The translations under genes and the position numbers were made by a program. A stretch of DNA of 64,000 nt from a virus. Shown here one piece after another: positions 442 to 19,940 of this stretch; the stretch's first letter is position 1, and each line of letters starts with the position of its first letter. The notes under the pieces are model-generated. The model had not been told where the DNA came from. It did not search any database and saw nothing but the letters and a program-made list of their open reading frames with translations. The stretch is from positions 1 to 64,000 of IMG/VR virus record IMGVR_UViG_3300044712_001462. One strand, 5' to 3'.

Positions 442-1912
442 TCTTCTGTTTCCCGTGTTTGAGCTGGGTCCAACCCTTCTTCTTGTAATCCGCTAATCGC
501 TGAAGCGACTTGCGTTTGAAAGAAGCATCGAACTCGTCCATGTAATCAATCAACAAACCGTACTGCTTGCCGTCGTTTAAACGAGAAAGCCGACCCGGGA
601 TCTGCGTGTCGGCTATCGCACTACTACTAGCATCCGCTCGGATCAGCACTTGCAAATGATGAAAATTCACACCGCGGTTCCACACCGTGGTAGCAATCAC
701 CTTGCGTAACGTACCTGCCTCAAATGCGCGTTTGTTCTCAAACAACTCAGTCGCAGTGATCGGTTCCATCTCTTGCGGAATCAACCCTCGCAACTTGTAG
801 TCATCAAGACTCTCTTTATGCATGTCATTGGGCGCATAGCACAAGGTGAATTCAGGCAAGTGCTTTTTCAGATAACAGGCATGCTCCAGCGTCTCCACCG
901 TGATGAGCACCTGGTCTTTCGGATGCTTCCGGGCATCTTCAGCAATCATGGCGTTACGGTGATTGTTCCGCCAAATACCAAACTTCTTGCGGAACACTCC
1001 ATCCATCCCCGCCGCGGGATTATTCCGCATCATGACCTCTCGCCAATGCACTTGGATGGGAACGATCATGTCGTTCTTCACACCCTCCTCGTACGTCAGC
1101 TTGGTAATGAGCGGACCAAAGATCCCTTCCAGCTCAAAGTCTGCGCCATCAAACCGGTCATTGAAGTTGGCACTCAGACCAAACATTCGCGAATACTCAA
1201 AACGCGCAAACTTCTCAAACATCACATCCGTGGCTAACTCGTGATGCTCATCTGCCAAGAAGATGTCAGTCGTCATGGGATCAATGTGTTGCAGCGATCC
1301 AGAAGAAACACACGTCACGCGGCAACCCATTTGCTTGGAGGAGCCGTTGACTAACCCCACGTCCGGTAAGTGTTTACTAAGACGCGTGTAATGCTCGTTG
1401 AGCACAGACAGGTGCTTTGTACAGATCACAATGCGTGCTCTGGGTAGCACCAAACAGAGAGGCACCATCAACCAACTCTTACCAGCACCCGTAGCCCACC
1501 ATACTTGACCCCTCTGATGGGCTAGCAGACACTCAAGCGTTTCGCGTTGACGGTGCCGCCAATCAAAGCCTTCCGCGTTATCCCAGTTTGGCACAAAGAC
1601 ACTGGCGCGACGTTCTGGCTCGAGATCTTTGATATTCGGCGTATAACCGTTTTGTTTCAAAACATCCGTGATGCGCTGTAAAAATCCCGCATTCGTGCGC
1701 AGCTGTGGTTCTTTGTCCACCGTGAGGGTGTCGAAGCAACGTACGACACTAATCTCCATGGTCCGGCCCTGAGCGGCATCACGCTCTTTTTTAGTCATCA
1801 GCTGCTTACGTCGCTCATACGTCAACGTACGTTTCAACAGATCCGCTAACTCACCTTTGACGTTACGAATGCGCAGCAAATTACGCTGCTTATAGATCGT
1901 CACCGTGCTCAT
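413..1912 (-). CDS. SF2 DNA/RNA helicase (UvsW-like)
   Basis: A 499-residue superfamily 2 helicase. Motif I is ATGAGKS at about 140-146, motif II is DEHH at about 221-224, and the motif VI-like QIPGRLSR lies near 455. The layout (an N-terminal domain of about 120 residues before motif I) resembles the phage T4 UvsW type, which unwinds branched recombination intermediates; the exact role here is inferred. The ATG at 1912 follows GGGAG with good spacing, so the ATG 12 bases upstream is less likely. It sits downstream of the SbcCD-like genes in the same operon. Confidence 0.9.
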   Translation of the reverse strand: MSTVTIYKQRNLLRIRNVKGELADLLKRTLTYERRKQLMTKKERDAAQGRTMEISVVRCFDTLTVDKEPQLRTNAGFLQRITDVLKQNGYTPNIKDLEPERRASVFVPNWDNAEGFDWRHRQRETLECLLAHQRGQVWWATGAGKSWLMVPLCLVLPRARIVICTKHLSVLNEHYTRLSKHLPDVGLVNGSSKQMGCRVTCVSSGSLQHIDPMTTDIFLADEHHELATDVMFEKFARFEYSRMFGLSANFNDRFDGADFELEGIFGPLITKLTYEEGVKNDMIVPIQVHWREVMMRNNPAAGMDGVFRKKFGIWRNNHRNAMIAEDARKHPKDQVLITVETLEHACYLKKHLPEFTLCYAPNDMHKESLDDYKLRGLIPQEMEPITATELFENKRAFEAGTLRKVIATTVWNRGVNFHHLQVLIRADASSSAIADTQIPGRLSRLNDGKQYGLLIDYMDEFDASFKRKSLQRLADYKKKGWTQLKHGKQKNGATDDEAA

Positions 1913-1953
1913 AGAAACTCCCACAGGTCAGCACGAATAGAAGCGCGACATTC

Positions 1954-1976
1954 AGTTGTAAGCCAAAGCTACAACT
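1954..1976. other. Hairpin between the 164-residue gene and the helicase
   Basis: AGTTGTA and GC pair with GC and TACAACT around a CAAA loop, with one bulged A: nine base pairs in a short gap. There is no T-tract on either strand, so it is not a classical terminator. It could be an RNA processing or stability element. Confidence 0.35.
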
Positions 1977-1981
1977 TGACG

Positions 1982-2476
1982 CTATTGCAGAGAGCGTCGG
2001 TCACGCGGCGTGATAGAAACCACGCGAAAGAAACCGAATTTGCGCGGGCCAAAGGGACTAATTCCCTTATACCGACCCACCAAATCCATCAACTTCCAGA
2101 AGTCTTCCAGAGGGATGGATTGCGGAACAACACAGTTTACGCTGATTATGTCCCCAGGGAAAAACGCTTCGTGCAGAATCCAGCGATCGCGCTCAAGATA
2201 GCGCCGATACAAAAACTCTGGATCCGTGCGCGTTTGGCCGTCAATAATGACATCGAAATGCACATTCTTCACGGCCCGATGGTGTTTACCCATAATCGTC
2301 GCGGCAAACACCAAGCTGGATTGCCACCAACTGGCTTCAAAACGAATCAGCCCGTCCGGAGTCCGTGGCATGTAATAACAGGGCCACGACCTGCCATCTG
2401 GAGTCGAGGGCGTCTTTCTTCGCACATCCCCCAAGCACTCCTTCGTGAATCGAATTGAGACCGTTAGTTCAATCAT
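1982..2476 (-). CDS. Unknown protein, 164 residues
   Basis: No family recognised. A mixed alpha/beta protein rich in aromatic residues, with no signal peptide or membrane segment. The second half has a conserved-looking LYRRYLERDRW helix and a PFGPRKFGFF segment near the C-terminus. It lies between the 322-residue gene (11 bases away) and the helicase in the recombination operon, so it may act in the same process; that is inference from position only. Confidence 0.75.
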   Translation of the reverse strand: MIELTVSIRFTKECLGDVRRKTPSTPDGRSWPCYYMPRTPDGLIRFEASWWQSSLVFAATIMGKHHRAVKNVHFDVIIDGQTRTDPEFLYRRYLERDRWILHEAFFPGDIISVNCVVPQSIPLEDFWKLMDLVGRYKGISPFGPRKFGFFRVVSITPRDRRSLQ

Positions 2477-2487
2477 CCATGACTCAT

Positions 2488-3456
2488 TTACGCCCGATTA
2501 CGTAGTTCCTCACAATGGGACCGATAAGCCTGCGCCACCGTCCCATCCTGATCCACGTTCGCCACGTCCATTCCTTTGCGCACAAAGAAATACTCAGGCA
2601 CAAACAGCTCCTGAGGTGACATGGCGTCGAGCCACACTTCCCGCAAAAACAACACAAACCACGAAGAGGCCCGCAGAGTACCCCTAATAGGATCATCTAT
2701 TTCCAGGTACCGACGCCAGACAAGATTGCCTGGAAGATCCAATTCGGGATAAGCCGGAGCCTCCCGCTTCGAATCCGTCCAGGCGTCAATGAGATTCCAG
2801 GTCCTCGAGGAAGCCTGACCGTATTGCTCCAAGACACTCACATCTCGGTGCCAAACCTTAGAGACAATCGGCGTTCGTAACCCAAGATAGCTGCGCAACT
2901 TAGCAGTGCGTCCAGGACGCGCTAGATCCACATACCATCTGGGGTCCACAATATGCGCCAGCAGCATCTCCATATCGACCCGGCTGTACTGCTGGAGAAA
3001 AGACACCGCCGCATAAGCCGGATGCTTCTCCAGCAAACCTTCTCGGTCTGTCCCGTAGAATACGGAGTTCACCAGCGCATACACCGTCATGTCGTGTCCG
3101 GTGGCCTTGTGCCAGCCACCCAGACACGCATTCAAACCATCTAGCCGGTCCATGCCTTCCAGCACTTCTCCCGGCTCCGTCTGGTACAGCGTTCGGCAGA
3201 ACAACGGAGTACCAATTTCCAATTTCTCTAAACACCCAGCTGCTTGTAACACCCGTCCGAGTTCAATAATCAAACCCGCATTACAAGGCAAACCTAGTAA
3301 ACGTACCTTCTCCGCCTTGGTGCACAACTCATCTGCAGCAAACGCATCAGCGCGTAGATTTGAAGATTTCGCCTTCCCTTTCCCATCCGCGAACCATACC
3401 ACGCCAGAGCTGTCCGCATAGGTACGAAGCTCTTTAACGTGTTTTCCTAGAAGCAT
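2488..3456 (-). CDS. Unknown protein, 322 residues, in recombination operon
   Basis: No family recognised. It starts at an ATG with AAGGCGGA upstream, and its first base is the last base of the SbcC-like stop codon, so the two are almost certainly translated together. Visible features are a Lys/Ser-rich stretch near residue 30 and a C-terminal half rich in Trp, Tyr and Leu; there are no nucleotide-binding loops. The position immediately after the SbcC/SbcD-like pair suggests an accessory factor of that complex or a replication clamp-loading or primosome protein, but I cannot distinguish these. Confidence 0.75.
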   Translation of the reverse strand: MLLGKHVKELRTYADSSGVVWFADGKGKAKSSNLRADAFAADELCTKAEKVRLLGLPCNAGLIIELGRVLQAAGCLEKLEIGTPLFCRTLYQTEPGEVLEGMDRLDGLNACLGGWHKATGHDMTVYALVNSVFYGTDREGLLEKHPAYAAVSFLQQYSRVDMEMLLAHIVDPRWYVDLARPGRTAKLRSYLGLRTPIVSKVWHRDVSVLEQYGQASSRTWNLIDAWTDSKREAPAYPELDLPGNLVWRRYLEIDDPIRGTLRASSWFVLFLREVWLDAMSPQELFVPEYFFVRKGMDVANVDQDGTVAQAYRSHCEELRNRA

Positions 3457-5570
3457 TAATTCCGCCTTATTTCAATTTTGTTGTCAAAGACTCGCTCAAG
3501 TCGATGATCATGTGTGATGATGATTACTTGCTGACCTTTTTCCCTGGTCACCTCGGAAACATGTTCCAACATGTCCACGAGACATTCAATATTGTCGCCG
3601 TCCAAGCCTGCCGTGGGTTCATCGAGAACCATCAAACCTACCTGTCCTGCGACCGAAAATCGGAAAGCAATCCCAAGGATTACCTTCTCACCACCCGATA
3701 GACGAGCGGCTTCCTCAACATACCCTCTCGGCTTATGCGCCATAAATGTCAGCTTGTCCTCCACGCTCACGCGGAAAGGACCGTTAAACAGCTCGAGTGT
3801 CTCATTGACACTATCCACCATGCCCTCCACTCTCGTCTGCGTGACGATGCGGGGAAGGGCCTCTCGGTGGAACACATCGCGCCACAGCGCCAAATCCGAC
3901 AGCCAGAGCTGAGCAGATTGTGTTCTCGCTATTAGAGTCGTGATGCGCTGAATGCCAGACTTATATTCATCCACCAGCTTCGAAGCTACCGAAAGAGCCG
4001 ACTTGTGCTTCCACAGATCCTGAGAAACCTGCTTGTGGACAGCGATCGCGTTAACAGCAGCCTCGTAGTCCTTCTCGCTGACCTTCAACTTGACGATCTG
4101 GCCACCTAGCGTCTTTACCTGGCGCTCCAGCTCGGCCGCACTACCTTCCTCCTGGGCAATCAACTTACGCGCTGTATTGCACTGCAGCTCCAGATCTTCG
4201 ACATACTGGATCGCTTCCTGCAGCTCGGCGTTAGCTGTACCCACATCCGCGGCGTTGATTTCTTCATCTACCTCTACAGGCGGGGGCAACTTAGCCAGAG
4301 CCAAGCGTGCTGATTCCATCTCCGCGTTATAAGCTTTGAGCTGTTTCTCGTAATCTGCGAGAGCCCGCTCGTAACCGTCAGAGATGCGATACTGCTTAAT
4401 CACCGCGTCATACTCGGCCTGCAGACGCTTCATCTCTTTGGTCCAGTGCTCAACACCGTTCTCCATATCGGATACCAGTGTTCCACACGTCGGACACTCC
4501 GAGACGCCGCCCTCCTCAAACACAGCGACCCGTTTCGCCAACACCTTCTTCTGGGTGTCAAGATCCCCCGCTCGAGATGCTAGTGCCTTGCTGTGCACGT
4601 ACTCGGGCGGCTCATCAATAACCGTAGGTGCTTTTTTCAGAAGTACGGCCTCGTACTTCTGACGCTGGACATCAAATTTCCTGTTAGCCTGCTGTTCGTC
4701 ATACTTGGCTTTCAGGGCCTTATATTCGGGCTGAAGCTTCGTATCAACCGCCTCACGAGCAGGCTCATACTCATCATCAAGCGCACGCAGCTTCGCGTAG
4801 AGTTTAATAATCTTCCCAGCCACCAGTGCTTGGCGTTCCTGAGCCTTCTCCAGATCCTGCAACAAGCGCTGGCGCATACCCCAGTCAGTCACCTGCTTCT
4901 CGGCTGCTTCCAGATCCTCGGGACTGAGGACGAACGTCTCCAGCTCCTTGATCTTCTCCTGTGCCGCAGCCATGCGCTTCTTCTGTTCTTTGATCTTCTC
5001 TTTCAGCTCATCGCGGTTGTCATCCACCTGGGAAGCCAACCCCTGATCCGCGGAGATCTGCTTACCCAGCATCGACCAGATCTGCTCAGCCCGATCGACA
5101 CCACAGAGCTTAGCGAAACTCTTTTGGCGCTCCGCGGGGTCTGATACCAGAATCGAGAAGGTGCTCCACTGCTGGACAAACATAAAGTTCTCGATGACGT
5201 GACGGTCGATGCCGATAAACTTTGTCAGCTCGTCAGAGATCTCATTCGCCTTCGACCACTTCTTGTCACCGATTACCAGCTTCTGGGAGGCCGGACGGAG
5301 CCCTCGCGTAATCGAGAAAGGGATTCCATCGTGCTCCCACTCCGTCACAATCTTCGACACCGCGTCCTCTGGAGCATCGTGTCGAATGTTAGCCTCTTTC
5401 TTACCTGGGTTGACTCCGAAGTCACCCGTCAGAGAGGCTTGGATCATATTTACAGCATTACTTTTTCCAGAACCATTCGGTGCGGTGATACCCGTAATGC
5501 CGGGCTCAAACTCTAAATATAGCTTCTCATGCTGACAAACATTCGTCAGATCTACCGACTTAAGCCGCAT
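3456..5570 (-). CDS. SbcC/Rad50-like (T4 gp46-type) recombination ATPase subunit
   Basis: A 704-residue SMC-like ATPase. Walker A PNGSGKS is at about residues 31-37. A long coiled coil is interrupted by a zinc hook CPTC near residue 358. The ABC signature LSGGEK is near 621, and Walker B with the following aspartate loop (VLDEPTAGLD) near 640. These are the diagnostic parts of SbcC/Rad50/gp46, which with its nuclease partner resects or trims DNA ends for recombination-dependent replication. It starts with ATG preceded by GGAGGAAGCGG, and overlaps the SbcD-like gene by 11 bases, typical of coupled translation of the two subunits. Confidence 0.95.
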   Translation of the reverse strand: MRLKSVDLTNVCQHEKLYLEFEPGITGITAPNGSGKSNAVNMIQASLTGDFGVNPGKKEANIRHDAPEDAVSKIVTEWEHDGIPFSITRGLRPASQKLVIGDKKWSKANEISDELTKFIGIDRHVIENFMFVQQWSTFSILVSDPAERQKSFAKLCGVDRAEQIWSMLGKQISADQGLASQVDDNRDELKEKIKEQKKRMAAAQEKIKELETFVLSPEDLEAAEKQVTDWGMRQRLLQDLEKAQERQALVAGKIIKLYAKLRALDDEYEPAREAVDTKLQPEYKALKAKYDEQQANRKFDVQRQKYEAVLLKKAPTVIDEPPEYVHSKALASRAGDLDTQKKVLAKRVAVFEEGGVSECPTCGTLVSDMENGVEHWTKEMKRLQAEYDAVIKQYRISDGYERALADYEKQLKAYNAEMESARLALAKLPPPVEVDEEINAADVGTANAELQEAIQYVEDLELQCNTARKLIAQEEGSAAELERQVKTLGGQIVKLKVSEKDYEAAVNAIAVHKQVSQDLWKHKSALSVASKLVDEYKSGIQRITTLIARTQSAQLWLSDLALWRDVFHREALPRIVTQTRVEGMVDSVNETLELFNGPFRVSVEDKLTFMAHKPRGYVEEAARLSGGEKVILGIAFRFSVAGQVGLMVLDEPTAGLDGDNIECLVDMLEHVSEVTREKGQQVIIITHDHRLERVFDNKIEIRRN

Positions 5571-6702
5571 CCGCTTCCTCCACCGTTAACCGCTCCTGTC
5601 GCAACATCTGCAACTCAGCAGCAGGATCTTTACTCTCCAGCAAACGATATAGCACCTGGTAGTGCTCATTATCCTCTGGCACCAGCAGCTTCAAGCAGCC
5701 TGCCAGACCGGCCTCAATCACGCGCTCGCGTTCTTCCCGCTCCAGAGAGATGGCCTCGTCTTCCGACTCGCGGACCAACAACTTCGGGAACAGAAAAGCC
5801 GTATTACCTACCGCATCCTGCACGCGCCGCAAAGCCCCTTCCACGTTGTCGTAGAACTTCAACCAGAGCATGGGCTTCTGCAGATGACCGGGTAACTCGT
5901 CGACGTCCAGACCGCTCAGCCGATCCTTCCACGTATCCACAAACTGCTCGAGATCGTCATCATCCGCGATCGTCTCGGTAATAACCGGTCGCGTCGGAAT
6001 CTCATGATGCGTCCAGCTGCCGTCTTCACGCAACAAGTAGTAATACTTCTTCGTGGGTTCATCGATCTTCCGCATATTCGTCGAGCCCGGTGAGTACACC
6101 GTCAGATCCTGACCCGACTCACCAATCAGCTTCAACACCTTGCGTTCGTGATAGTCACCAGTGAAAACCGTCTTGGCATACGGGATCTGGGTAAAACTAC
6201 CCTCACAGGGACGAAGGGCCCCCATAAGCTCCATCCAGACCTGGTGACAGACAAACAAATCGCAGTTCGACGGGATCGCCTTCAACTTCGACGCCAACTT
6301 GTCTCCCGGAGTCCAGTCCAAGCCGTACATCAGCATACCGTTTGGCAACTCCACGGCTTTCTCGTTCAAGTGAACAGGACAGCTGTGCGCGCTGATCGGC
6401 CAGGGCGGATCCGCCATGCAGTGTTGACCCTGGATAAAATACAGATCCAGGCCTTTGTCGCACACTGCTGCGGCTTGCTCCCGAAAGAAACGGATCACCT
6501 CAGAAGGAGGCTTCCGTACATCGAAGACATCGCCTGCCAGACAAATGAAAGATACCGATTCTGCCTCGGTCACTAAATACTCAAACGCCCACATGGCGTC
6601 CCCGCGGAGCTCAGGTTTCGAGCTCCACGCGTTAACATCTAGATGAGTGTCGGCACAGAATAGGCCGACCGGCTGAGCTAGCCGTTTAAGAAGTTTGCTC
6701 AC
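5560..6702 (-). CDS. SbcD/Mre11-like (T4 gp47-type) nuclease subunit
   Basis: A 380-residue calcineurin-like phosphoesterase paired with the SbcC-like gene. Phosphoesterase motifs in order: D18-x-H20, G57-D58-x-x-D61, a motif III reading GQHC at 92-95 where the family has GNHD, H153, and GDYH at 182-185 where the family usually has GHxH. The distal PGSTN segment is also typical of Mre11/SbcD. The start is GTG in the GAGTGAGTGAG junction with the upstream gene (4-base overlap). The metal-ligand Asn is replaced by Gln and the next Asp by Cys, so catalysis may be altered. Confidence 0.9.
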   Translation of the reverse strand: MSKLLKRLAQPVGLFCADTHLDVNAWSSKPELRGDAMWAFEYLVTEAESVSFICLAGDVFDVRKPPSEVIRFFREQAAAVCDKGLDLYFIQGQHCMADPPWPISAHSCPVHLNEKAVELPNGMLMYGLDWTPGDKLASKLKAIPSNCDLFVCHQVWMELMGALRPCEGSFTQIPYAKTVFTGDYHERKVLKLIGESGQDLTVYSPGSTNMRKIDEPTKKYYYLLREDGSWTHHEIPTRPVITETIADDDDLEQFVDTWKDRLSGLDVDELPGHLQKPMLWLKFYDNVEGALRRVQDAVGNTAFLFPKLLVRESEDEAISLEREERERVIEAGLAGCLKLLVPEDNEHYQVLYRLLESKDPAAELQMLRQERLTVEEADAA

Positions 6703-6959
6703 TCACTCTCCCAGGGTAATTCCACTTCAGGAAATGCACTCCGCAACACATTCCGAATCAATCGCTCCGCCACTACCAACTTCTCTTCCGCTTCCCTCAC
6801 GTTCTCAATCACAGGACCACCAGTTACACCTAACACCGGTAACTGGTCAGCCTGCAGCGCATGCACGTCCCTGCGTGTAGCCCCCACCATGATTAAAATG
6901 CTCAGCAGCTGAGTCCTGTCCAACTTCGGCATGGTTAGCCGATTCTCCGCGTCGGACAT
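6699..6959 (-). CDS. Unknown small protein, first gene of recombination operon
   Basis: An 86-residue protein with an ATG preceded by GCGAGGAG at good spacing. It is largely helical and acidic, with Glu-rich amphipathic segments from residue 50 on. No family recognised. It is the promoter-proximal gene before the SbcD-like gene and overlaps it by four bases, so it is probably co-translated with the nuclease complex. Its leader carries an 11-bp perfect inverted repeat. Confidence 0.75.
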   Translation of the reverse strand: MSDAENRLTMPKLDRTQLLSILIMVGATRRDVHALQADQLPVLGVTGGPVIENVREAEEKLVVAERLIRNVLRSAFPEVELPWESE

Positions 6960-6978
6960 TACTACTCCTCGCTAGAGA

Positions 6979-7014
6979 AGAGTCAGCCCTGAACTCCGGT
7001 GCCGGGCTGACTCT
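6979..7014. other. Perfect 11-bp inverted repeat in operon leader
   Basis: AGAGTCAGCCC (6979-6989) and GGGCTGACTCT (7004-7014) are exact reverse complements separated by 14 bases. It lies 20 bases before the first gene of the recombination operon, downstream of the candidate promoter, and has no T-tract. It could be an operator for a dimeric regulator, or an RNA hairpin controlling translation or stability. Confidence 0.7.
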
Positions 7015-7071
7015 ACAGATAAGACACTGTGCGCTCCATTCAGCAACTCTACGCTATTTTCACATAACTGT

Positions 7072-7100
7072 AATTGTTAATTCTTCGTAACGTTCGTCAA
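7072..7100 (-). promoter_or_regulatory. Candidate sigma70-type promoter of recombination operon
   Basis: On the minus strand TTGACG (7095-7100) is followed after 17 bases by ACAATT (7072-7077). This gives five of six matches to the -35 consensus and four of six to the -10 consensus. It sits between a strong terminator and the first gene of the operon, where a promoter is needed. Confidence 0.45.
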
Positions 7101-7121
7101 TCAACCACATGAGGGGTTTTT

Positions 7122-7157
7122 GAAAAAAACAGAAGACCGGCCGAGGGCACCGGTCTT
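7122..7157 (-). terminator. Rho-independent terminator after the acidic-protein gene
   Basis: Reading the minus strand, AAGACCGG pairs with CCGGTCTT (8 bp, 9-base loop) and is followed within two bases by seven T residues. It lies 24 bases past the stop codon of the 256-residue gene and closes the CsrA/alpha-CTD transcription unit. Confidence 0.85.
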
Positions 7158-7181
7158 CATTCGCGCGGGGCTGTCATTCGA

Positions 7182-7952
7182 TTAGGCCGACTGCTCAATC
7201 GCCTCTTTGATCTTCTTGCGTAACTGCTTCTCGTTTGTCTTGCTGCTGTAAACGACCCCCAGCTCGTCTGCAATCACCACCAAATCTTCCAGGGCGTAGG
7301 AATCGATGTCCAGCTCACTGAAGTCAACACCTTCCTCGTCCGCGTCACCCTCTACTTCGGAATCTTCGGCAGCATCAGATTCTTCGTCATCTTCGTACTC
7401 GAAGTCTCCTTCTTCGCCTTCATCCGTATCGTCGACTTCTTCAGCCGCTTCCTTCGTTTCAAACGGAACAGTTTCTGCCTCCTCGTTGTCTTCCTCTTCA
7501 CTGGCTGGCTCGTCGTCTGCGGTTGCATCAAGCACACAATCAACCTCCGCTACAGAACTATCCACGGATGCCACTTCTTCGTCAACGTCTGCTTTGATCT
7601 CTTCTTGCCGCGCCTTAACCAGGTTACCGAACTCCGGCGTGGCCACAAACTCCACTGGGTTGCCGTCGGCATCGCCTAGCATCAACATTGCGTGCGCTGA
7701 CGTCAGTATGCTGCTGACAAGCCCCTGAAACATCTCAAAATTCGTGTGACAACTAGTCACATTGGTGTTGTACAAGACAGGTTGCGGATTGTTCTCGTCT
7801 AGGTCGTACCCCACGCGCATAATCCGCCCAAATGCTCGCGCAGTCAGGGGCCCCGAGAACAACACATCCTTCACGAACGGAACCATTCCGCAACCAGGCA
7901 CGTTCGCAGCATCCAACGTAATGACCGTCTTCTTCACTTCTTTCTTCGCCAT
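7182..7952 (-). CDS. Acidic protein with possible Rho-N/SAP-like C-terminus
   Basis: A 256-residue protein in three parts. Residues 1-110 form a compact domain with no recognised family. Residues 120-205 are extremely acidic (long Asp/Glu runs) and probably disordered. Residues 207-256 (FSELDIDSYALEDLVVIADE onward, ending in a KQLRKKIKEAI helix) resemble the small helical Rho-N/SAP/HeH fold that binds nucleic acid. It is the last gene of the CsrA/alpha-CTD unit and is followed by a strong terminator. A nucleic-acid-binding or scaffold role is inference. Confidence 0.8.
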   Translation of the reverse strand: MAKKEVKKTVITLDAANVPGCGMVPFVKDVLFSGPLTARAFGRIMRVGYDLDENNPQPVLYNTNVTSCHTNFEMFQGLVSSILTSAHAMLMLGDADGNPVEFVATPEFGNLVKARQEEIKADVDEEVASVDSSVAEVDCVLDATADDEPASEEEDNEEAETVPFETKEAAEEVDDTDEGEEGDFEYEDDEESDAAEDSEVEGDADEEGVDFSELDIDSYALEDLVVIADELGVVYSSKTNEKQLRKKIKEAIEQSA

Positions 7953-7957
7953 ACTCT

Positions 7958-8146
7958 TTAGTTCTCCTGCTCAACAGACTTCAGTTTTGGATCTACAATG
8001 TTTTCTAACTCTGTCCGCAGCACACGTATGTGCTTCGGAGCCACAATCCCTAGCCGCACCCGACCGTTGTTGCACTGAATAGGCACAATCAGAATGTCGT
8101 CACCAATGCGAATTGATTCATTTGTCCTCCGTGTGATACACAACAT
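7958..8146 (-). CDS. csrA: CsrA/RsmA-family translational regulator
   Basis: The 62-residue product matches CsrA in length and along its whole sequence. It has the N-terminal strand MLCITRRTNESIRIGDD, a central RVRLGIVAPK segment, and the strand containing R44 (VLR), the residue that contacts the GGA motif in E. coli CsrA. CsrA dimers bind GGA-containing hairpins near ribosome binding sites and repress or stabilise mRNAs. The ATG is preceded by AAGGAATGGA. The gene lies six bases before the acidic-protein gene and directly after the alpha-CTD-like gene, so phage control of host gene expression is a reasonable inference. Confidence 0.93.
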   Translation of the reverse strand: MLCITRRTNESIRIGDDILIVPIQCNNGRVRLGIVAPKHIRVLRTELENIVDPKLKSVEQEN

Positions 8147-8162
8147 ATTCCATTCCTTTGGG

Positions 8163-8480
8163 TTAAAACCCGATCATAAACCTGCGTTCTTGCGTTCGTT
8201 TTCGCTCTAATTCCTCTTTCACCGAGCGAATGTATTCACGGCTTGGGCGATAGAAGCCCAGCTTTTCCAGCGCGCGGTATATCTTGCTTACCGTCTTATC
8301 GCCGATGTTTGGAATCCCTAGTAGCTCTTCAGGGCGACTCAGTAAGAGGTCGCGAATCGTCCGCACAACCGGCGGGTGACTAGGATTTTCTAGAGCATTT
8401 GTTGTCCGAACATCAAGACCAAGAACTTGCACAGGCTCATCTAAGAGAGCCTGTTGTTCGCGTGTCAATCCTTCAAGCAT
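8163..8480 (-). CDS. Stand-alone RNA polymerase alpha C-terminal-domain-like protein
   Basis: A 105-residue protein whose residues 13-76 follow the bacterial RpoA C-terminal domain: DEPVQVLGLDVRTTNAL, then a helix, then a helix-hairpin-helix IPNIGDKTVSKI. Residues that contact UP-element DNA in E. coli alpha are kept: R25 (R265), N28 (N268), G60 (G296) and K62 (K298); S299 is Thr. The alpha N-terminal assembly domain is absent. A basic helical tail (77-105) follows. It may bind DNA or sigma in competition with, or in support of, host polymerase; that is inference. The ATG follows AGGAATCTGA. Confidence 0.88.
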   Translation of the reverse strand: MLEGLTREQQALLDEPVQVLGLDVRTTNALENPSHPPVVRTIRDLLLSRPEELLGIPNIGDKTVSKIYRALEKLGFYRPSREYIRSVKEELERKRTQERRFMIGF

Positions 8481-8800
8481 TCAGATTCCTGGGATACATA
8501 GAAATAGCCACACATTTCCTTCGGATCACTGCGCGCACCGAAGCTGATAACTGCTGCACGATATTTATCCTGCAGAATAGGCAGGAGGTACTCTATCGCT
8601 TCCCTCACAGCCAACTCTGATCCAAGATAGCGCACTACAGCACGTCCACCATAGTACGACCAGTCGACTCGCTGACCACTCAGCTTGGCCACAGCGCGAA
8701 CCCAGTTTTCAATCTCAGCACACGGCACCGTATGTGTAACAAATATTGCTCTACCGTGGGAAAACACATCCGCATCGCACGGCGGTAATTCCTTACTCAC
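8465..8800 (-). CDS. Unknown protein upstream of the alpha-CTD gene
   Basis: About 111 residues. The GTG at 8800 has GAGAGG six to seven bases upstream; an in-frame ATG at 8806 is an alternative but is placed right against the same site. No family recognised. Mixed alpha/beta, with no membrane segment. Its 3' end overlaps the alpha-CTD-like gene by 16 bases, so the two are probably co-expressed. Confidence 0.7.
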   Translation of the reverse strand: MSKELPPCDADVFSHGRAIFVTHTVPCAEIENWVRAVAKLSGQRVDWSYYGGRAVVRYLGSELAVREAIEYLLPILQDKYRAAVISFGARSDPKEMCGYFYVSQESECLKD

Positions 8801-9080
8801 AATCATCCTCTCTTGCTGCGGCCTCAATCAAATGTGGTGGCACCGGCACGTCCTGGATCCTAGCCACTCGCTGCAGTCGTCGAGCTATGTCAGGCGGACA
8901 ACCAGGATCGTCCCATCCGCTTAACGTCTCCACAGGCGGCAACAGACACTTCAACAACTCCACATCCTCACGCAGACTGATTATATCTCGCTGCAAAAAA
9001 TCAATCAGCGTCTCGGGTCTCGGCTTAGGCACACGACCGTACCCCTGCGACTCGCACCAGGCCTTATAACTATCACTCAC
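8793..9080 (-). CDS. Unknown small protein, 95 residues
   Basis: It starts with GTG at the GGTGAGTG junction with the gene upstream (4-base overlap) and ends overlapping the next gene by 8 bases. Residues 25-50 form a predicted helix with heptad-like Leu spacing. The first residues (SYKAWCESQGYGRVPKP) are basic and aromatic. No family recognised. Confidence 0.7.
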   Translation of the reverse strand: MSDSYKAWCESQGYGRVPKPRPETLIDFLQRDIISLREDVELLKCLLPPVETLSGWDDPGCPPDIARRLQRVARIQDVPVPPHLIEAAAREDDCE

Positions 9081-9508
9081 CCTCTATCCTCCCCGTTATC
9101 TACTGGCTCCCGCGGCGTATCCCACTGAGGCTTCAGACTCGAGCCCAGAATATTCTGTTTCCACAACGGCCATGTTTTCACTTCTGCGCTTGCCCACTCC
9201 AGATGTTTCTGGAACAGCGCGTCTTTGAATTGCCGTAACTCATCGCGCAGCCACACTATCTCTGCGTCCTGCTCCTCAACCCGCTTCCTCAACTTAACAA
9301 TCTCGCTACACTGTTCCCGCCAGTCGGGCAGAAACTCATCCATCTCCAAGGGACCAAACCCGCCTCGCTCAGCTAATCGTTCCAGCGATTGACGTCGTCC
9401 GTACTGCGCGGCGTATACAGAATACGCCAACTCAGCCACGCTCCACGGAATCAACAGCGGGTGCGGCTGAGCCCCTCGTTGCGGCTGAATCGGAAACATT
9501 TTTGTCAT
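9077..9508 (-). CDS. Unknown coiled-coil protein, 143 residues
   Basis: The ATG start follows an AGAGAG-type site. An N-terminal segment holds YGRRQSLERLAERGGFG (about 35-51). Then comes a charged coiled coil (about 65-95, KLRKRVEEQDAEIVWLRDEL) and a Trp/Pro-rich tail. No enzyme motif. The layout resembles many phage accessory proteins in which a short head is followed by a coil. Function unknown. Confidence 0.7.
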   Translation of the reverse strand: MTKMFPIQPQRGAQPHPLLIPWSVAELAYSVYAAQYGRRQSLERLAERGGFGPLEMDEFLPDWREQCSEIVKLRKRVEEQDAEIVWLRDELRQFKDALFQKHLEWASAEVKTWPLWKQNILGSSLKPQWDTPREPVDNGEDRG

Positions 9509-9514
9509 ACATCA

Positions 9515-9534
9515 CTCTCTAATAGCGCTATCTC
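9515..9534. promoter_or_regulatory. Recurring 20-base intergenic motif, copy 1
   Basis: CTCTCTAATAGCGCTATCTC on the plus strand, overlapping the stop codon of the 129-residue gene and lying just before the next gene. Closely matching copies occur at 26643-26662 and 38504-38523, and a shorter core at 57321-57336. On the minus strand its AGAGAG end sits near the Shine-Dalgarno position. Role unknown. Confidence 0.5.
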
Positions 9535-9917
9535 GGAGTTTCAGAACTCGGAGACAGCTCAATACCCAGTAGCTCAGCAGCCTTCCTCACATCAGCCAGG
9601 GTGACACTACTCAGCTCTATCCGATAGCCATAAGTCTTTTGGTGAATCTCCGACACTAGACGCGCAAACTCTACCCTGTCGTTGTAGTGCTGCTCGGAGT
9701 CATACAAAGTGCCCGGAGATGAATACTCACCTCCATCAACCTGTCGCCAGTATTTGTCTGTCTTGTCAAAGCGATGACCGTTAGACAAGGTACACCACTT
9801 CCTACCCACCTTTGTCACCGTTACTGGTCCAGATGTATTGAACCTCTGAGCACCAACAAACCAGAACGTGTCACCTACTTTTACATCCACTACTATCTCT
9901 CCCCCGAACTCTAGCAA
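9528..9917 (-). CDS. Unknown protein with beta-barrel-like N-terminus
   Basis: A 129-residue protein. Residues 8-50 look like a small SH3/KOW-type barrel (VGDTFWFV, then VTVTKVGRKWCTLSNG), a pattern seen in many phage accessory proteins. The C-terminal half is helical. It overlaps the Thg1-like gene upstream by 7 bases. A nearby GTG or ATT could be the true start, so the N-terminus is uncertain by a few residues. Function unknown. Confidence 0.7.
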   Translation of the reverse strand: MLEFGGEIVVDVKVGDTFWFVGAQRFNTSGPVTVTKVGRKWCTLSNGHRFDKTDKYWRQVDGGEYSSPGTLYDSEQHYNDRVEFARLVSEIHQKTYGYRIELSSVTLADVRKAAELLGIELSPSSETPR

Positions 9918-10621
9918 GCTACCGACTCGTCGCAGTACACCAACGGTTCCAACACCTCGTTGATCTCTCCATACGACGGCAGAATATCACTGCGCAACTC
10001 CTCGCCGATAATGAACGTCCCATTCCGCTCAACATCACTTAGATCAGTAGCCCAGTTCTTATCGATCGAATGCAGCATCTCGTGCTGATCCGCCCGGCCT
10101 TTACCGTGCATCTCTTTGTGTGAGAAGTAGTGCCCACAGTACATGGTTACGGAGTTCCGTTCCCAGTCCTTCGCTCTCCAGAGAAAGTAGTTGACTACCT
10201 CCTCTCGAGGAATATTAAACGCACGGGCATCAAATGCAGCCATCAGCTGGCTATCCTCGCACACTCCCCAAATGAAGCGGTTAAACGTAGCCGTAAACAG
10301 ACTAGCTGTGATTGATTCCAGCTTGCTCTTCACGTAGCCGAACCAACCCTCTGTCTGATGTGTGTCATAGTCTGTCAGCAAGAAAGACGCCTCATCACTC
10401 TGGATGTACGCCGCCTTAAATCCTTGCATCTCTTTGGACACCTGCTGGGCTGAATCGCGCATAGCATCAATTATCAGCTCGGAAAACGGCCTATCAAACG
10501 ACCGCGTATACGTGTGAAAAGCTCGCCCATCCACCCGTATAATCACAGGCATCCGCCGCACCAGCTGATGTCGACTTGGAAACTCGTAATTCGCCTTCAT
10601 TCTTGCGCCAATGTCCATCAT
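9911..10621 (-). CDS. Thg1-like 3'-5' nucleotidyltransferase (tRNAHis guanylyltransferase family)
   Basis: A 236-residue protein matching the Thg1/TLP palm domain. IRVDGRAFHTYTRSF at 28-42 carries the first metal-binding Asp (D31). QSDEASF at 74-80 carries D76 and E77. RAFNIP...NYFLWRAKDWERNS follows in the family position. All three catalytic carboxylates are present. Family members add nucleotides to RNA in the 3'-to-5' direction, either as G-1 of tRNAHis or as 5'-end repair. The start is one of two adjacent ATGs after AAGGAGG (10621 or 10618). The phage could use it to repair tRNAs cut by host defence; that is inference. Confidence 0.9.
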   Translation of the reverse strand: MMDIGARMKANYEFPSRHQLVRRMPVIIRVDGRAFHTYTRSFDRPFSELIIDAMRDSAQQVSKEMQGFKAAYIQSDEASFLLTDYDTHQTEGWFGYVKSKLESITASLFTATFNRFIWGVCEDSQLMAAFDARAFNIPREEVVNYFLWRAKDWERNSVTMYCGHYFSHKEMHGKGRADQHEMLHSIDKNWATDLSDVERNGTFIIGEELRSDILPSYGEINEVLEPLVYCDESVAC

Positions 10622-10830
10622 TACCTCCTTGGGCCCAGGTGATAATTCCCCACATACCCCTTTGTATAGATGTCCAACATCACGTCGTCCGGTAGGTCTA
10701 ACACCTCGTCACACAGACTTACCAGGTCGGCTAACCAGAACTCGTCACCGACCTTACCAGTAAGCTGTTCTTCCCGCAAATACCGGAGACAGCATCCGAT
10801 CACATACTCAGCGTCACTCTTACGCACCAC
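10621..10830 (-). CDS. Unknown small protein, 69 residues
   Basis: I chose the GTG at 10830 because GGAGGAG precedes it. A longer frame to 10905 exists but would lie mostly inside the upstream gene and lacks a better site; GTG at 10827 is equally possible. The product is acidic and Leu/Asp rich (SLCDEVLDLPDDVML). Its stop overlaps the start of the Thg1-like gene by one base. Function unknown. Confidence 0.65.
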   Translation of the reverse strand: MVRKSDAEYVIGCCLRYLREEQLTGKVGDEFWLADLVSLCDEVLDLPDDVMLDIYTKGYVGNYHLGPRR

Positions 10831-11272
10831 GCATCTCCTCCAGAGCTTCCCGTGCCGCTTCAATACGATCCTCATCCTGCCAGTCAAACCGCCAGGCAAT
10901 GTCATCCAACGTGCTGAGAGCCAGGTCTAACTCTTGCTTCTGTTTTTGCATCTGCTCAGCCCGCTGTGCCAGCGTATTCCGGATGAACTCACTGGGCTTG
11001 GTACTTGTTGCGCAGACGACCCGCTCTAGATCATCCTCATTCTCGATCCCGCTCACGGCTTTCAGGCACGCCATTACGGTGTCTAGGGCATCCAGCTGCT
11101 TCTTGCGCACCGTTTCCAGTTCTTCTTCAAGAACCTTACAGCGTCGGGCTAACACCGGCACCATGGCCATACTGTCGTCAACCCAGCCCTCTAGGATCTC
11201 GTCGTATGTCCAGGCTCGCTCTTGTAGCTCAACACCCAGAGACACTGTCTCCATTGTTTTAACAGGTTCCAT
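10820..11272 (-). CDS. Unknown coiled-coil protein, 150 residues
   Basis: The ATG at 11272 has GAGGAG seven bases upstream and a 14-base overlap with the upstream stop, so I reject the longer frame reaching 11455. The protein is almost entirely helical, with two Leu/Glu/Lys coiled-coil stretches (about 30-60 and 95-145). No catalytic motif. Function unknown. Confidence 0.75.
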   Translation of the reverse strand: MEPVKTMETVSLGVELQERAWTYDEILEGWVDDSMAMVPVLARRCKVLEEELETVRKKQLDALDTVMACLKAVSGIENEDDLERVVCATSTKPSEFIRNTLAQRAEQMQKQKQELDLALSTLDDIAWRFDWQDEDRIEAAREALEEMRGA

Positions 11273-11858
11273 CACACTGCTCCTCGAATTTGCTAATACC
11301 CCAGACGATCGCTCGACAGGCGAAAATGAAATGATACGTATAGGCGTGCAGATTCGCCTCGTAGAAGTCCTGAAATACAAGATGTCCATCGTACTCGTAG
11401 TCGTAGCACAGACGGCGAAGATAATCCTCCCCCTCTTCAACAGCAGGGAGGACATCGCTGTAAACAGCCCGCTTTAACACCGAAGGGTATTCTCTTACCC
11501 AGTCCTTAATAGCCGTAGCCGCTGTTCGCGCGTCGTACCTCATGACCCCCTCTGTACCACTGGCAATGACTTTCTCACCCCAGTACTGCGGATTAATCCG
11601 TCTACCGCGGAAGAAATCAAACATGTCCTCTATTCGGGCAAACACATAGGTTCCCATGTCGCCCGTATAGCAGAGGTGCCCTGACCAGGTCAGGATGTCA
11701 AAAGCATCCACAGACCCATATGGGCCACGAAATTTCAGATGGCGCTTCTGGCCTACCACAAAACTCTCTACGAGCTTGTGATCCTTAACCCGACGCAAAA
11801 ACTCTTGCTCTATTGGCAGATAAGTATCTAGGGTTATCGTTCTACTTTCCGTCTCCAC
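11259..11858 (-). CDS. Conserved phage-type protein, 199 residues
   Basis: Contains LTWSGHLCYTGDMGTYVFAR (about 57-76) followed by IEDMFDFFR, a stretch I recognise from uncharacterised proteins of many phages and prophages. The rest is mixed alpha/beta, with Tyr and Phe rich helices at the end. No known activity. It overlaps both neighbours by 14-17 bases within the small-gene operon. Confidence 0.8.
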   Translation of the reverse strand: METESRTITLDTYLPIEQEFLRRVKDHKLVESFVVGQKRHLKFRGPYGSVDAFDILTWSGHLCYTGDMGTYVFARIEDMFDFFRGRRINPQYWGEKVIASGTEGVMRYDARTAATAIKDWVREYPSVLKRAVYSDVLPAVEEGEDYLRRLCYDYEYDGHLVFQDFYEANLHAYTYHFIFACRAIVWGISKFEEQCDGTC

Positions 11859-12177
11859 CGTGCTCCTTTAGCTCCATAGATACCACCATCCCCTGCGCAT
11901 AGAAGTACTCAGTGCTCGGAAGCTTAATCTTGCTCGGAAATGGCTTACACTCGAGCCCATCCAGGCATTGCCTCGCTAAATGCGCTTCATAGCTTCCAGG
12001 GGTCGTACCCGCGATCAGATCCAGTCCAGACCGCAGCCGCTCAATCTCTTCCTGCTGAGCTCGCAGCACGACCACAACATCTTCCAGATCAGCGTACGTC
12101 CCGTTTCGTACAATCCACTCGGTGATCTCTCCGCTAAATGGATTCTCATGCTTACGAACAAGCCACACATCACTCAT
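11842..12177 (-). CDS. Unknown protein, 111 residues
   Basis: The ATG at 12177 follows GGAGGCACAAGAAG and overlaps the upstream stop by 8 bases; the longer frame to 12348 is an artefact of overlap. The N-terminal part is beta-like (SDVWLVRKHENPFSGEITEW), the middle is a short coiled coil (VVLRAQQEEIERLRSGL), and the tail is short. No family recognised. Confidence 0.7.
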   Translation of the reverse strand: MSDVWLVRKHENPFSGEITEWIVRNGTYADLEDVVVVLRAQQEEIERLRSGLDLIAGTTPGSYEAHLARQCLDGLECKPFPSKIKLPSTEYFYAQGMVVSMELKEHGGDGK

Positions 12178-12373
12178 CTTCTTGTGCCTCCAGCTTCTCC
12201 CTAAACTCCACCAAAGAGTTGAAATACCCGCCGTCCAGCGAAAACACCTTCTTTGTAGCCAAGTCGACCGACCAGCCATCCACCTGACAGTCGTACAACC
12301 ACTTATAAGCCTCTCGCTCGGCATCAGAAAACTTAGCCGGAAGATCATCCCGTCTATCCTTCGTCTTTCTCAT
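12170..12373 (-). CDS. Unknown small basic/acidic protein, 67 residues
   Basis: The ATG at 12373 has GGAGGG seven bases upstream, a better site than the ATG five codons earlier. It starts with a basic stretch (RKTKDRRDD) and ends in a Glu-rich helix. Probable alpha/beta fold with SLDGGYFNSL. No family recognised. Confidence 0.65.
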   Translation of the reverse strand: MRKTKDRRDDLPAKFSDAEREAYKWLYDCQVDGWSVDLATKKVFSLDGGYFNSLVEFREKLEAQEDE

Positions 12374-12525
12374 CTTGTATCCCTCCACGCCTCACACCCG
12401 GCCCGCCAGCCCATCGAGCAGGCCACACTACCACAAAACAGAATTCGCCCGGCGTACATAGGCAAGAGCCACAGTAGACGCCAGGCGATAATGTAAGGCG
12501 GATTCCAGTCTTCAGGCCACTTCAC
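12370..12525 (-). CDS. Small membrane protein, 51 residues
   Basis: The GTG at 12525 lies 12 bases past GGAGG in the end of the gene upstream; no ATG fits better. After a short polar start (KWPEDWNPP) comes about 33 largely hydrophobic residues (YIIAWRLLWLLPMYAGRILF onward) that could form one or two membrane helices, then a basic tail. It is one of several tiny membrane proteins in this operon. Confidence 0.55.
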   Translation of the reverse strand: MKWPEDWNPPYIIAWRLLWLLPMYAGRILFCGSVACSMGWRAGCEAWRDTR

Positions 12526-12796
12526 TGCGAACAGGCTCCTCCAGCAACCAAGGGCAACGAGTCGCCCACTCTTCGTCGAAATCCGCGGGACCGTAAGATG
12601 TTGCATCCTCGTAGTAATGCCTGGCGCAGTTTTGAGCCTCGTCTAACTGCGCCTGTAACTCATCCACTCGCTTAACCAGCAAAGCATCCCCACCTTGCCA
12701 GATGTGTACTCGCGCACCGTGGGGAGCCTCCACGATCAATGAACCATCATCACAGTCCTTGACAATTACCCAGCCAGTCAAATCACTGATGGTCAT
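12512..12796 (-). CDS. Unknown protein, 94 residues
   Basis: The ATG at 12796 follows GGAGTGGAA and overlaps the upstream stop by 14 bases. Residues 1-45 are beta-like with Gly/Asp turns, followed by a coil (VDELQAQLDEAQN) and an acidic aromatic end. No family recognised. Confidence 0.7.
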   Translation of the reverse strand: MTISDLTGWVIVKDCDDGSLIVEAPHGARVHIWQGGDALLVKRVDELQAQLDEAQNCARHYYEDATSYGPADFDEEWATRCPWLLEEPVRSEVA

Positions 12797-13073
12797 TTCC
12801 ACTCCAATCTGCAATCTGCCGATCTATAGCCGCAGCAAACGTCTCACCAACAGGGCTAACCGTAGACACCCACCGCCACGTACCATCATTACGGCAGTCC
12901 TTGTTTATCACCATGTGATCGCGAATGTACTCAAATCTCCTGGCAGAAGCCTGTAACTCAGCCACCTGCTTCTCCAAATCCCGGACCCGAGCCCTCAGCG
13001 ACTCGTTGGAGGCCCGCTCCACCCCCTCTGGACCCTCTGAGCCTCGTTCAATCATATCTCCAATGTCACTCAT
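12783..13073 (-). CDS. Unknown protein with short coiled coil, 96 residues
   Basis: The ATG at 13073 has GGAGGCGTGAA before it and shares ATGA with the upstream stop. Residues 20-50 (RARVRDLEKQVAELQASARR) form a coil, followed by a Trp-rich segment (DGTWRWVSTVSP). This coil-then-aromatic-domain layout recurs in neighbouring genes. Function unknown. Confidence 0.7.
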   Translation of the reverse strand: MSDIGDMIERGSEGPEGVERASNESLRARVRDLEKQVAELQASARRFEYIRDHMVINKDCRNDGTWRWVSTVSPVGETFAAAIDRQIADWSGNDHQ

Positions 13074-13645
13074 TTCACGCCTCCAACCGCCCTGGCTCGC
13101 TCGATCCACTCATCCCACACCACCTCGTACGTATCTCCGCTATCCCAGATCTCCACAGCCTCCTGCAGCAACTCCTGTGACGACTCCAGGCGCTGCATCA
13201 TCGGCGCAATCACCTTCCTGGCTTGCCGCTCCCAGGCCCCAAAATACTCGTCGCCTGGACAAACATCATCTGGAAGAAAGTCTGCAATGTACGCACTGAG
13301 CAAACTCAGCACGTCGTTCACGGTCTTCGGATACGCGTCATCGGTCTGCGCGTCCGTATCCGGTCGACAAGGCTCCAAAAGCTGGCATAGACGCTCAACC
13401 TCCGCTGTCTTCTCAGCCAGCTGCTTTCTTAAACACTCAACACAGACACCGCAGGAGCCATTACCAGCATCTTGCTCCTCCTGGCACGATCGCAAAACAG
13501 CTACTTCCAGGTCAGCCACATTTAACCGGTGGAGACAGGAAGCCATCTCATTAGACAAACACCTGGAGCACCAGTAATTACCCACTGCCCGCACGTGGTA
13601 ACCATATGACACGTCGCCGCATTTACAGCATTTCGTCACTTCCAA
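13070..13645 (-). CDS. Zinc-ribbon and coiled-coil protein, 191 residues
   Basis: An N-terminal zinc ribbon with C6-x-x-C9 and C26-x-x-C29. Further Cys residues at about 65-71 (CGVCVEC) could form a second site. A coil follows (RKQLAEKTAEVERLCQLL) and a helical C-terminus. The first codon is probably TTG after AAAGGATAG; GTG two codons on is possible. Likely nucleic-acid or protein binding; no specific role can be given. Confidence 0.7.
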   Translation of the reverse strand: MEVTKCCKCGDVSYGYHVRAVGNYWCSRCLSNEMASCLHRLNVADLEVAVLRSCQEEQDAGNGSCGVCVECLRKQLAEKTAEVERLCQLLEPCRPDTDAQTDDAYPKTVNDVLSLLSAYIADFLPDDVCPGDEYFGAWERQARKVIAPMMQRLESSQELLQEAVEIWDSGDTYEVVWDEWIERARAVGGVK

Positions 13646-13888
13646 CTATCCTTTCTCCTTGCCACATCGCTCGCAGCGCCGCTTAGCCGTCATGCTGTCG
13701 AGTAGACAGAGCATTGGACTCATGAACAACTCAATACCGTATCCTGAGGCGTTGCGCTCTGACATCGATCCAGGCTTGTAAGGTTCGTCGACACGCCGCC
13801 ACTTATGCCAACCAAACCAACAGAAAATCCGCGTCACTCCCCACCAGAAAAATAGCCACATCACTCCCAGCCAGTAGAGAAATCGCAT
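13646..13888 (-). CDS. Small membrane-anchored protein with C-terminal Cys pair
   Basis: 80 residues. The ATG at 13888 shares TGATG with the upstream stop and follows GGAGGGCGAG. Residues 2-24 are a very aromatic membrane segment (FLYWLGVMWLFFWWGVTRIF), then a soluble part, ending in CERCGKEKG, a possible half zinc site. Probably an inner-membrane accessory protein. Confidence 0.7.
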   Translation of the reverse strand: MRFLYWLGVMWLFFWWGVTRIFCWFGWHKWRRVDEPYKPGSMSERNASGYGIELFMSPMLCLLDSMTAKRRCERCGKEKG

Positions 13889-14253
13889 CACTCGCCCTCC
13901 TCAAGTCTTATCAGCACCAAATCCGAACCGGCATACACCAGACGACAGCCAGCAGCGTGGATGGCCTTACTCACCTCTGCGGAATCTCTCGTCTGAGCCT
14001 CGTAGGCTTTCCGATACCCATTGCACTCGGACTGAGATGTGGCAAGCTGCTGCTCCAGATCGGCCACGCGAACGATCACGCCATTCTCGACGTCTTCACA
14101 CTTCGTGACCGCTTCCGCAAGCTGCTGCTGTGTCGCCTCCAGCGCATTAGCCAGCTCACCAATCAACTCCCCGCAGTAACAACAAAGCCAACCAATGCCG
14201 TTACGTAAAGGATTCGCCTCTGCGTGGCGGGCTCGTTCGAGTAAATCGCTCAC
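13888..14253 (-). CDS. Unknown coiled-coil protein, 121 residues
   Basis: A GTG start sharing GTGA with the upstream stop. CxxC at about 24-27 (WLCCYCGEL) and a long helix/coil from 30 to 90 (LEATQQQLAEAV, VADLEQQLATSQSE), then a beta-like tail (CRLVYAGSDLVLIRLEE). Function unknown. Confidence 0.7.
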   Translation of the reverse strand: MSDLLERARHAEANPLRNGIGWLCCYCGELIGELANALEATQQQLAEAVTKCEDVENGVIVRVADLEQQLATSQSECNGYRKAYEAQTRDSAEVSKAIHAAGCRLVYAGSDLVLIRLEEGE

Positions 14254-14519
14254 GGTCGCGCTCTCGTCATCTTGGCCATCTCCTTATCTCGACACTCGCC
14301 GAGGCACAACAGCGGAGCACCGTCCCAGCGCACCGCATCCCAGTAATATCCAGAAGGATCTGGATACAAATCCGCCGAGCCACACACTTTACATGTTGGC
14401 GGAGGCAGCTGACGGGCCATAGCCTCTGCAATCTTTTCAAACTCCTTAGACCTCTCTCGCCAAAAATCAATGTCTTTTTGCATCTGGAGCAGTCGGGCGC
14501 TAGTAACAATACGGAGCAT
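14250..14519 (-). CDS. Zinc-ribbon small protein, 89 residues
   Basis: The ATG at 14519 shares its A with the upstream TGA and follows GGGAGG. A helical N-terminus (10-40) is followed by C43-x-x-C46 and C72-x-x-x-C76, a likely zinc site, with an aromatic loop (SGYYWDAVRWDG) between. Function unknown. Confidence 0.7.
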   Translation of the reverse strand: MLRIVTSARLLQMQKDIDFWRERSKEFEKIAEAMARQLPPPTCKVCGSADLYPDPSGYYWDAVRWDGAPLLCLGECRDKEMAKMTRARP

Positions 14520-15016
14520 CACTCACCTCCCGCTTGTGCCGCCTCAGCCGTTGAATAGAACTTCGTCGGGTCATCAACGATGTGACACCCATTCCAGTCC
14601 ACCCAGTAAGCATCCAGCTTGGCTATCGGATCATAAAGGTTACGCGACATCCGATCGCCTCTGAACAAATCCATTCCGGGTCGAATCGGAACACCGTCTT
14701 TGGTCTTAGGCAGTGAATCAACAATCTCCTGGGCCGCGGAAAGCTTCTGCTCGAGTGATTCAACTTCATCATCCGTGTCATGCAGCTCTTGCACGGCATC
14801 TGCGTGCGTCATCGTTTCGCTGCCGCCGTCGATGATCGACCGCAGCTCCTCGTAAAGCGATTCCGTCCTTCCCAGCCTCTCGTTCTCAGTCGTAATTCGC
14901 TCTAGCTCATCGGCAGCCTGACAAACAATACAACTGTAATCGATCCTACTCCGGCACTCTGCGTACGGATTGAGCATCGCGCACAGTTTGCGCAATTCGT
15001 CAGGCAGGTTACTCAT
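14519..15016 (-). CDS. Unknown protein with central coil, 165 residues
   Basis: Starts with ATG inside the end of the upstream gene (8-base overlap). It has Cys residues at the N-terminus (C12, C21, C29, C32), a coil around 35-100 and a C-terminal region holding PKTKDGVPIRPGMDLFRGD and WVDWNGCHIVDDPTKFYST. The last segment resembles a small beta domain found in many phage accessory proteins. Function unknown. Confidence 0.75.
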   Translation of the reverse strand: MSNLPDELRKLCAMLNPYAECRSRIDYSCIVCQAADELERITTENERLGRTESLYEELRSIIDGGSETMTHADAVQELHDTDDEVESLEQKLSAAQEIVDSLPKTKDGVPIRPGMDLFRGDRMSRNLYDPIAKLDAYWVDWNGCHIVDDPTKFYSTAEAAQAGGE

Positions 15017-18386: not shown

Positions 18387-18389
18387 CTC

Positions 18390-19349: not shown

Positions 19350-19382
19350 TTAAAAAAACAACACTTCTCCCACAGGACAATC

Positions 19383-19461: not shown

Positions 19462-19523
19462 AATTGAGAAAAAACGCTTAGTAAGGTAAGTAGATTAGAT
19501 TCAACCAGCCAAAGACAGCAGAT

Positions 19524-19557: not shown

Positions 19558-19592
19558 TGAAAAAACATCACATCGCCTATCCCATCTCAAGA

Positions 19593-19671: not shown

Positions 19672-19713
19672 TTAAAAGAAAAGTTCCTTAGTTTAGTAAG
19701 TATTAAGCTTAGT

Positions 19714-19931: not shown

Positions 19932-19940
19932 CTGAACACC

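What the first reader, a model, noticed from the sequence alone, without database searches (positions are those of the whole stretch)
7958..8146. Phage-encoded CsrA with its RNA-contact arginine
The 62-residue product follows CsrA along its whole length and keeps R44 in VLR, the residue that reads the GGA motif. CsrA in a lytic-type phage could reprogramme host translation or protect phage mRNAs. It is paired with an alpha-CTD-like gene, which makes a transcription/translation takeover cassette likely.
Basis: partly seen in the sequence, partly recalled or inferred. Interest (0 to 1): 0.75.

Follow-up and report, generated by a model that had tools for sequence, protein, structure and literature searches.

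The report
Large phage carries bacterial RNA regulator CsrA
A very large, little-known virus of bacteria carries an intact-looking copy of CsrA, a small protein that bacteria use to control which messenger RNAs are translated; such viral copies are already known, and the less usual part is its neighbour, a loose piece of RNA polymerase that traces to planctomycete bacteria.

Summary
The ORF at 7958-8146 (minus) is a CsrA: Pfam 64.2 bits against a cut-off of 27, matching the PHROG "CsrA-like regulator" and solved CsrA/RsmE structures, with R44 and the other near-universal residues kept. It lies in a 224.5-kb viral record between an alpha-CTD-like gene (16 nt upstream) and an acidic 256-aa gene closed by a terminator. 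Phage CsrA is not new: a 2020 survey found it in 30 of 2,517 phages, IMG/VR holds hundreds, and knocking one down in phage PTXU04 shrinks plaques. So this is a new member of a known kind, most likely repressing translation by binding GGA sites. Its own start region is rich in ANGGA, a weak hint of autoregulation. The alpha-CTD is the rarer part: no viral relative was found, and it falls with full support inside a stand-alone alpha-CTD family of Planctomycetota, some of which carry up to 13 csrA copies. The host is therefore probably a planctomycete. A dedicated csrA/alpha-CTD takeover cassette is not shown, as no second example was found. The phage also encodes its own beta/beta' RNA polymerase, a sigma-like protein and a tyrosine recombinase, so "lytic" is unproven.

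The parts
7958..8146 (-). csrA: 62-aa CsrA-family RNA-binding protein
   Evidence: Pfam CsrA 64.2 bits vs cut-off 27; PHROG 9500; CsrA/RsmE structures; R44, R6, L2, E46 kept
8154..8158 (-). ANGGA (AAGGA) overlapping the csrA Shine-Dalgarno: candidate self-binding site
   Evidence: not separable from an ordinary Shine-Dalgarno
8149..8153 (-). ANGGA (ATGGA) just before the csrA start: candidate self-binding site
   Evidence: at least 2 ANGGA in -20..0 in only 4 of 327 genes
8125..8132 (-). ACGGAGGA early in the csrA coding region: further GGA sites, partly dictated by the conserved T-R-R residues
   Evidence: 3 ANGGA in -20..+30, reached by 2 of 327 genes
8163..8480 (-). stand-alone RNA polymerase alpha-CTD-like protein, 105 aa, no alpha N-terminal domain
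   Evidence: PF03118 39.7 bits vs 23.8; inside a planctomycete stand-alone alpha-CTD clade, support 100/100
7182..7952 (-). 256-aa acidic protein of unknown function, 5 nt downstream of csrA
   Evidence: no Pfam match; weak PHROG 2130 match to its last 36 residues
7132..7158 (-). intrinsic terminator closing the csrA transcription unit (10-pair stem, then 7 T)
   Evidence: first-listed of 26 terminator-like sites in 1-20000
8465..8806 (-). upstream ORF overlapping the alpha-CTD gene by 16 nt, unknown function
   Evidence: no Pfam or PHROG match; gene call
9528..9890 (-). protein with a phage ProQ C-terminal-like domain, same strand run; membership of the csrA unit not shown
   Evidence: PF24203 57.9 bits vs 27

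Best explanation
A genuine phage CsrA. Shown: family membership, conserved RNA-contact residues, and position in a same-strand unit with an alpha-CTD-like gene and an acidic protein, ended by a terminator. Inferred: it forms a homodimer, binds ANGGA/GGA sites in mRNA leaders, and mainly lowers translation of host and possibly phage messages in a planctomycete-like host that itself may carry several CsrA copies; its own start region carries three ANGGA motifs, so it may repress its own translation.
For: Pfam 64.2 bits; PHROG 9500; PDB relatives; R44 present in all 32 planctomycete, all 10 viral and 59 of 61 other aligned sequences (two gaps) and in this one; ANGGA density of its start region; CsrA placed in a group of only planctomycete and viral sequences, SH-aLRT 82, unstarred; planctomycete genomes with up to 13 csrA matches; alpha-CTD phylogeny pointing to Planctomycetota. 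Outside: knock-down of the csrA homologue of phage PTXU04 gives small plaques (PMC11879866).
Against: H43 is L, L4 is I and I47 is L here. Score is below the NCBIfam equivalog cut-offs. ANGGA cannot be told from Shine-Dalgarno sequence, the leader folds no better than shuffles (z 1.07), and no Csr sponge RNA family was found.
Confidence: 0.8

Rival explanations
1. csrA and the alpha-CTD gene form a dedicated transcription/translation takeover pair: the free alpha-CTD competes with the host RNA polymerase for UP elements or activators while CsrA redirects translation.
For: Adjacent, same strand, 16 nt apart; alpha-CTD residues equivalent by eye to E. coli R265, N268, G296 and K298 are kept; a terminator closes the unit.
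Against: Adjacency within a long same-strand run is weak; no alpha-CTD near any other viral csrA examined; no relative of the alpha-CTD found in 50,697 phage records or IMG/VR.
Confidence: 0.15
2. CsrA acts mainly on phage mRNAs, as a timing device for the phage's own genes, rather than on the host.
For: 17 of 326 phage leaders carry two or more ANGGA, csrA among them.
Against: The ANGGA peak lies exactly at the Shine-Dalgarno position, so it may be only ribosome binding sites.
Confidence: 0.3
3. A decoy CsrA that forms mixed dimers with the host CsrA copies or titrates their partners (FliW, sponge RNAs).
For: Probable hosts have many csrA copies; CsrA is an intertwined dimer (established knowledge of the family).
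Against: The RNA-contact positions are kept, so there is no sign of a dead binding face.
Confidence: 0.12

Closest known systems
CsrA/RsmA family (Pfam PF02599), cellular
   Same: Full domain, RNA-contact residues including R44, 62 aa
   Different: Phage-borne; residue 43 is L, not H; scores under the NCBIfam csrA equivalog cut-offs
Phage CsrA proteins (PHROG 9500; RsmM type of P. aeruginosa phages such as F116; PTXU04 gp28)
   Same: CsrA in a phage genome; 43-45% identity to the F116-type and Vibrio phage copies
   Different: Large phage with its own RNA polymerase, probable planctomycete host, alpha-CTD neighbour
Stand-alone alpha-CTD proteins of Planctomycetota (L121, L127-L132; seen in this work)
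   Same: Single alpha-CTD without the N-terminal domain; VRTTN and DLL motifs; the phage copy falls inside the clade
   Different: Phage copy has a 4-residue insert and a basic C-terminal tail of about 28 residues

Membership tests
CsrA (PF02599) | Score over the curated family cut-off | tested here: met
   64.2 bits vs 27
CsrA (PF02599) | RNA-contact residues (L4, R6, R7, V42, R44, I47 in E. coli, from knowledge of the family) | tested here: met
   R6, R7, V42, R44 identical; L4 to I and I47 to L, both seen in other family members
csrA equivalog (TIGR00202, NF002469) | Score over the equivalog cut-off | tested here: not met
   57.8 vs 70.1 and 58 vs 73 bits: family member, not a strict orthologue
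CsrA (PF02599) | Dimer formation and binding to GGA RNA | not testable with these tools
   structure prediction off; needs experiment
RNA polymerase alpha-CTD (PF03118) | Score over cut-off and DNA-contact residues R265/N268 | tested here: met
   39.7 vs 23.8 bits; R25 and N28 are invariant columns
RNA polymerase alpha subunit (full RpoA) | N-terminal assembly domain | tested here: not met
   105-aa ORF; best RpoA equivalog scores about 30 bits vs cut-offs of 228-434

The most novel reading that the evidence does not exclude
The phage captured a stand-alone alpha-CTD from planctomycetes and uses it as a detached DNA-binding subunit of its own beta/beta' RNA polymerase (no alpha N-terminal domain was seen), in one transcription unit with CsrA, giving linked control of phage transcription and translation.
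Probability: 0.1. Interest if true: 0.75.

Novelty: new member of a known kind. Interest (0 to 1): 0.36.

Why it matters
Phage CsrA is a known but barely tested class, and its role in infection is open. This copy adds a divergent member from a large phage with its own RNA polymerase and a probable planctomycete host, a bacterial group whose phages are poorly known. The free alpha-CTD beside it is, as far as these searches reach, without a viral relative, and would allow a simple test of whether phages use detached RNA polymerase domains.

Tried and rejected
Structure prediction: switched off. Close relatives by terminase or SbcC in IMG/VR: none. DNA similarity to known phages for the first 25 kb: none. 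CsrA sponge RNA by Rfam: none. Phage-wide ANGGA enrichment: rejected as evidence because it coincides with Shine-Dalgarno sites. CsrA tree as proof of host: too few columns.

Full report
What is there. The ORF at 7958-8146 on the minus strand (62 aa, ATG) is a CsrA-family protein. Pfam CsrA scores 64.2 bits against a curated cut-off of 27, over profile positions 1-49 of 53. PHROGs gives 'CsrA-like regulator' at 5.9e-16, and the best solved relatives are RsmE, CsrA and related carbon storage regulators. It scores below the NCBIfam csrA equivalog cut-offs, so it is a divergent member of the family. In an alignment of 107 CsrA proteins the near-universal positions L2, R6, E10, I14, G15, P37, R44 and E46 are all kept; position 43 is L where E. 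coli has H, a position that varies widely.

The setting. The window is the first 64 kb of a 224,528-base virus record; its first 25 kb have no near relative among 50,697 phage records. csrA lies 16 nt downstream of an alpha-CTD-like gene and 5 nt upstream of an acidic 256-aa gene, after which comes a strong terminator (stem 7158-7132, then seven T). The unit therefore ends with csrA and the 256-aa gene.

Is phage CsrA new? No. A survey found it in 30 of 2,517 phage genomes (PMC7366521). In phage PTXU04, knock-down of the csrA homologue reduced plaque size (PMC11879866), so at least one phage CsrA matters during infection.

The neighbour. The 105-aa product of 8163-8480 matches only the C-terminal domain of RNA polymerase alpha (39.7 bits, cut-off 23.8). 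It had no match among phage records or IMG/VR, whether searched alone or as an alignment, and none in PHROGs. In 294 Planctomycetota genomes its best matches are stand-alone alpha-CTD ORFs at 47-59 bits and 44-49% identity, whereas 249 Pseudomonadota and 149 Bacillota genomes gave only matches of about 32 bits or less, nearly all in ORFs of rpoA length. In a tree of 62 alpha-CTD domains the phage protein lies inside the planctomycete stand-alone group (support 100/100), which in turn groups with the RpoA alpha-CTDs of planctomycete genomes, two of them from named Pirellulaceae. The phage branch is long (1.19), so its place within that group is unsure. The columns equivalent to E. coli R265 and N268 are invariant in this set (the equivalence was drawn by eye). 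The four genomes with the best stand-alone alpha-CTDs carry 3 to 7 csrA matches, and others in the phylum up to 13. CsrA itself falls in a group made only of planctomycete and viral sequences, but with modest support (SH-aLRT 82, 55 columns). Together these make a planctomycete host likely; this is inference.

How it probably works. By established knowledge of the family, CsrA dimers bind ANGGA motifs, often over the ribosome binding site, and repress translation. The csrA start region reads AAAGGAAUGGAAU-AUG and continues to ACACGGAGGA: two ANGGA before the start (4 of 327 genes have this) and three within -20 to +30 (2 of 327). This resembles the self-repression known for E. coli csrA, but AAGGA is also a normal Shine-Dalgarno and the third motif lies in codons that the family sequence favours; several window sizes were tried, so the rank is only suggestive. 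The RNA is not unusually structured (z 1.07), though the centroid fold leaves both upstream GGA sites unpaired between two small hairpins.

Takeover cassette? The adjacency is real but unsupported as a functional unit: none of the other viral csrA loci or records examined has an alpha-CTD, and the planctomycete alpha-CTD loci read show no csrA beside them. The phage also encodes its own beta/beta' RNA polymerase in a 1,911-aa ORF that joins beta to the first part of beta' and holds a LAGLIDADG intein, with more of beta' in a separate gene, and a protein with sigma-70 region 3. No alpha N-terminal domain was seen, though none was searched for by profile over the whole record, so a free alpha-CTD might serve either host or phage polymerase. 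A tyrosine recombinase is present, so the 'lytic' label is open.

Verdict. Observation confirmed; this CsrA is a new member of a known kind. The alpha-CTD next to it is the more unusual gene, and the planctomycete link is the most useful new piece of context.

Noticed in passing
L095:12475-18210 (record 116475-122210, minus): 1,911-aa ORF joining RNA polymerase beta to the N-terminal part of beta' (NADFDGDQMNF), with a LAGLIDADG intein between; more of beta' (Rpb1 domain 5) is a separate ORF at L095:8644-10542. Relatives at 31-57% identity in IMG/VR contigs up to 216 kb and at 33% in Salmonella phage Arash.
   Followed up: partly
L121, L127-L132: A stand-alone alpha-CTD protein family (about 93-142 aa, VRTTNCLE motif) in Planctomycetota incl. 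Pirellulaceae, and ORFs of 450-511 aa with two alpha-CTDs.
   Followed up: partly
planctomycete genomes G078, G099, G257, G211 and others: Up to 13 csrA-like matches per genome in Planctomycetota; the 2020 survey names Pseudomonas and Legionella as the multi-copy genera and does not mention planctomycetes.
   Followed up: no
L095:11132-11500: 122-aa ORF with a GGQ RF-1 domain (84 bits), a release-factor-like protein next to the RNA polymerase genes.
   Followed up: no
window 59964-60713: Sigma-70 region 3 match (30.8 bits) with a region-4-like helix-turn-helix: a probable phage sigma factor.
   Followed up: no
window 9911-10621 and 9528-9890: tRNA-His guanylyltransferase (Thg1) and a ProQ C-terminal-like domain protein in the same strand run as csrA, further RNA-related genes.
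   Followed up: no
L097:737-956 and L096:1983-2054: Group I intron (71 bits) and one tRNA by Rfam.
   Followed up: no
L100:14162-17518: Family A DNA polymerase with an N-terminal uracil-DNA glycosylase superfamily domain in the same ORF.
   Followed up: no
record 147765-148313 (L195): Tyrosine recombinase (55.9 bits), so a temperate or plasmid-like phase is not excluded.
   Followed up: no
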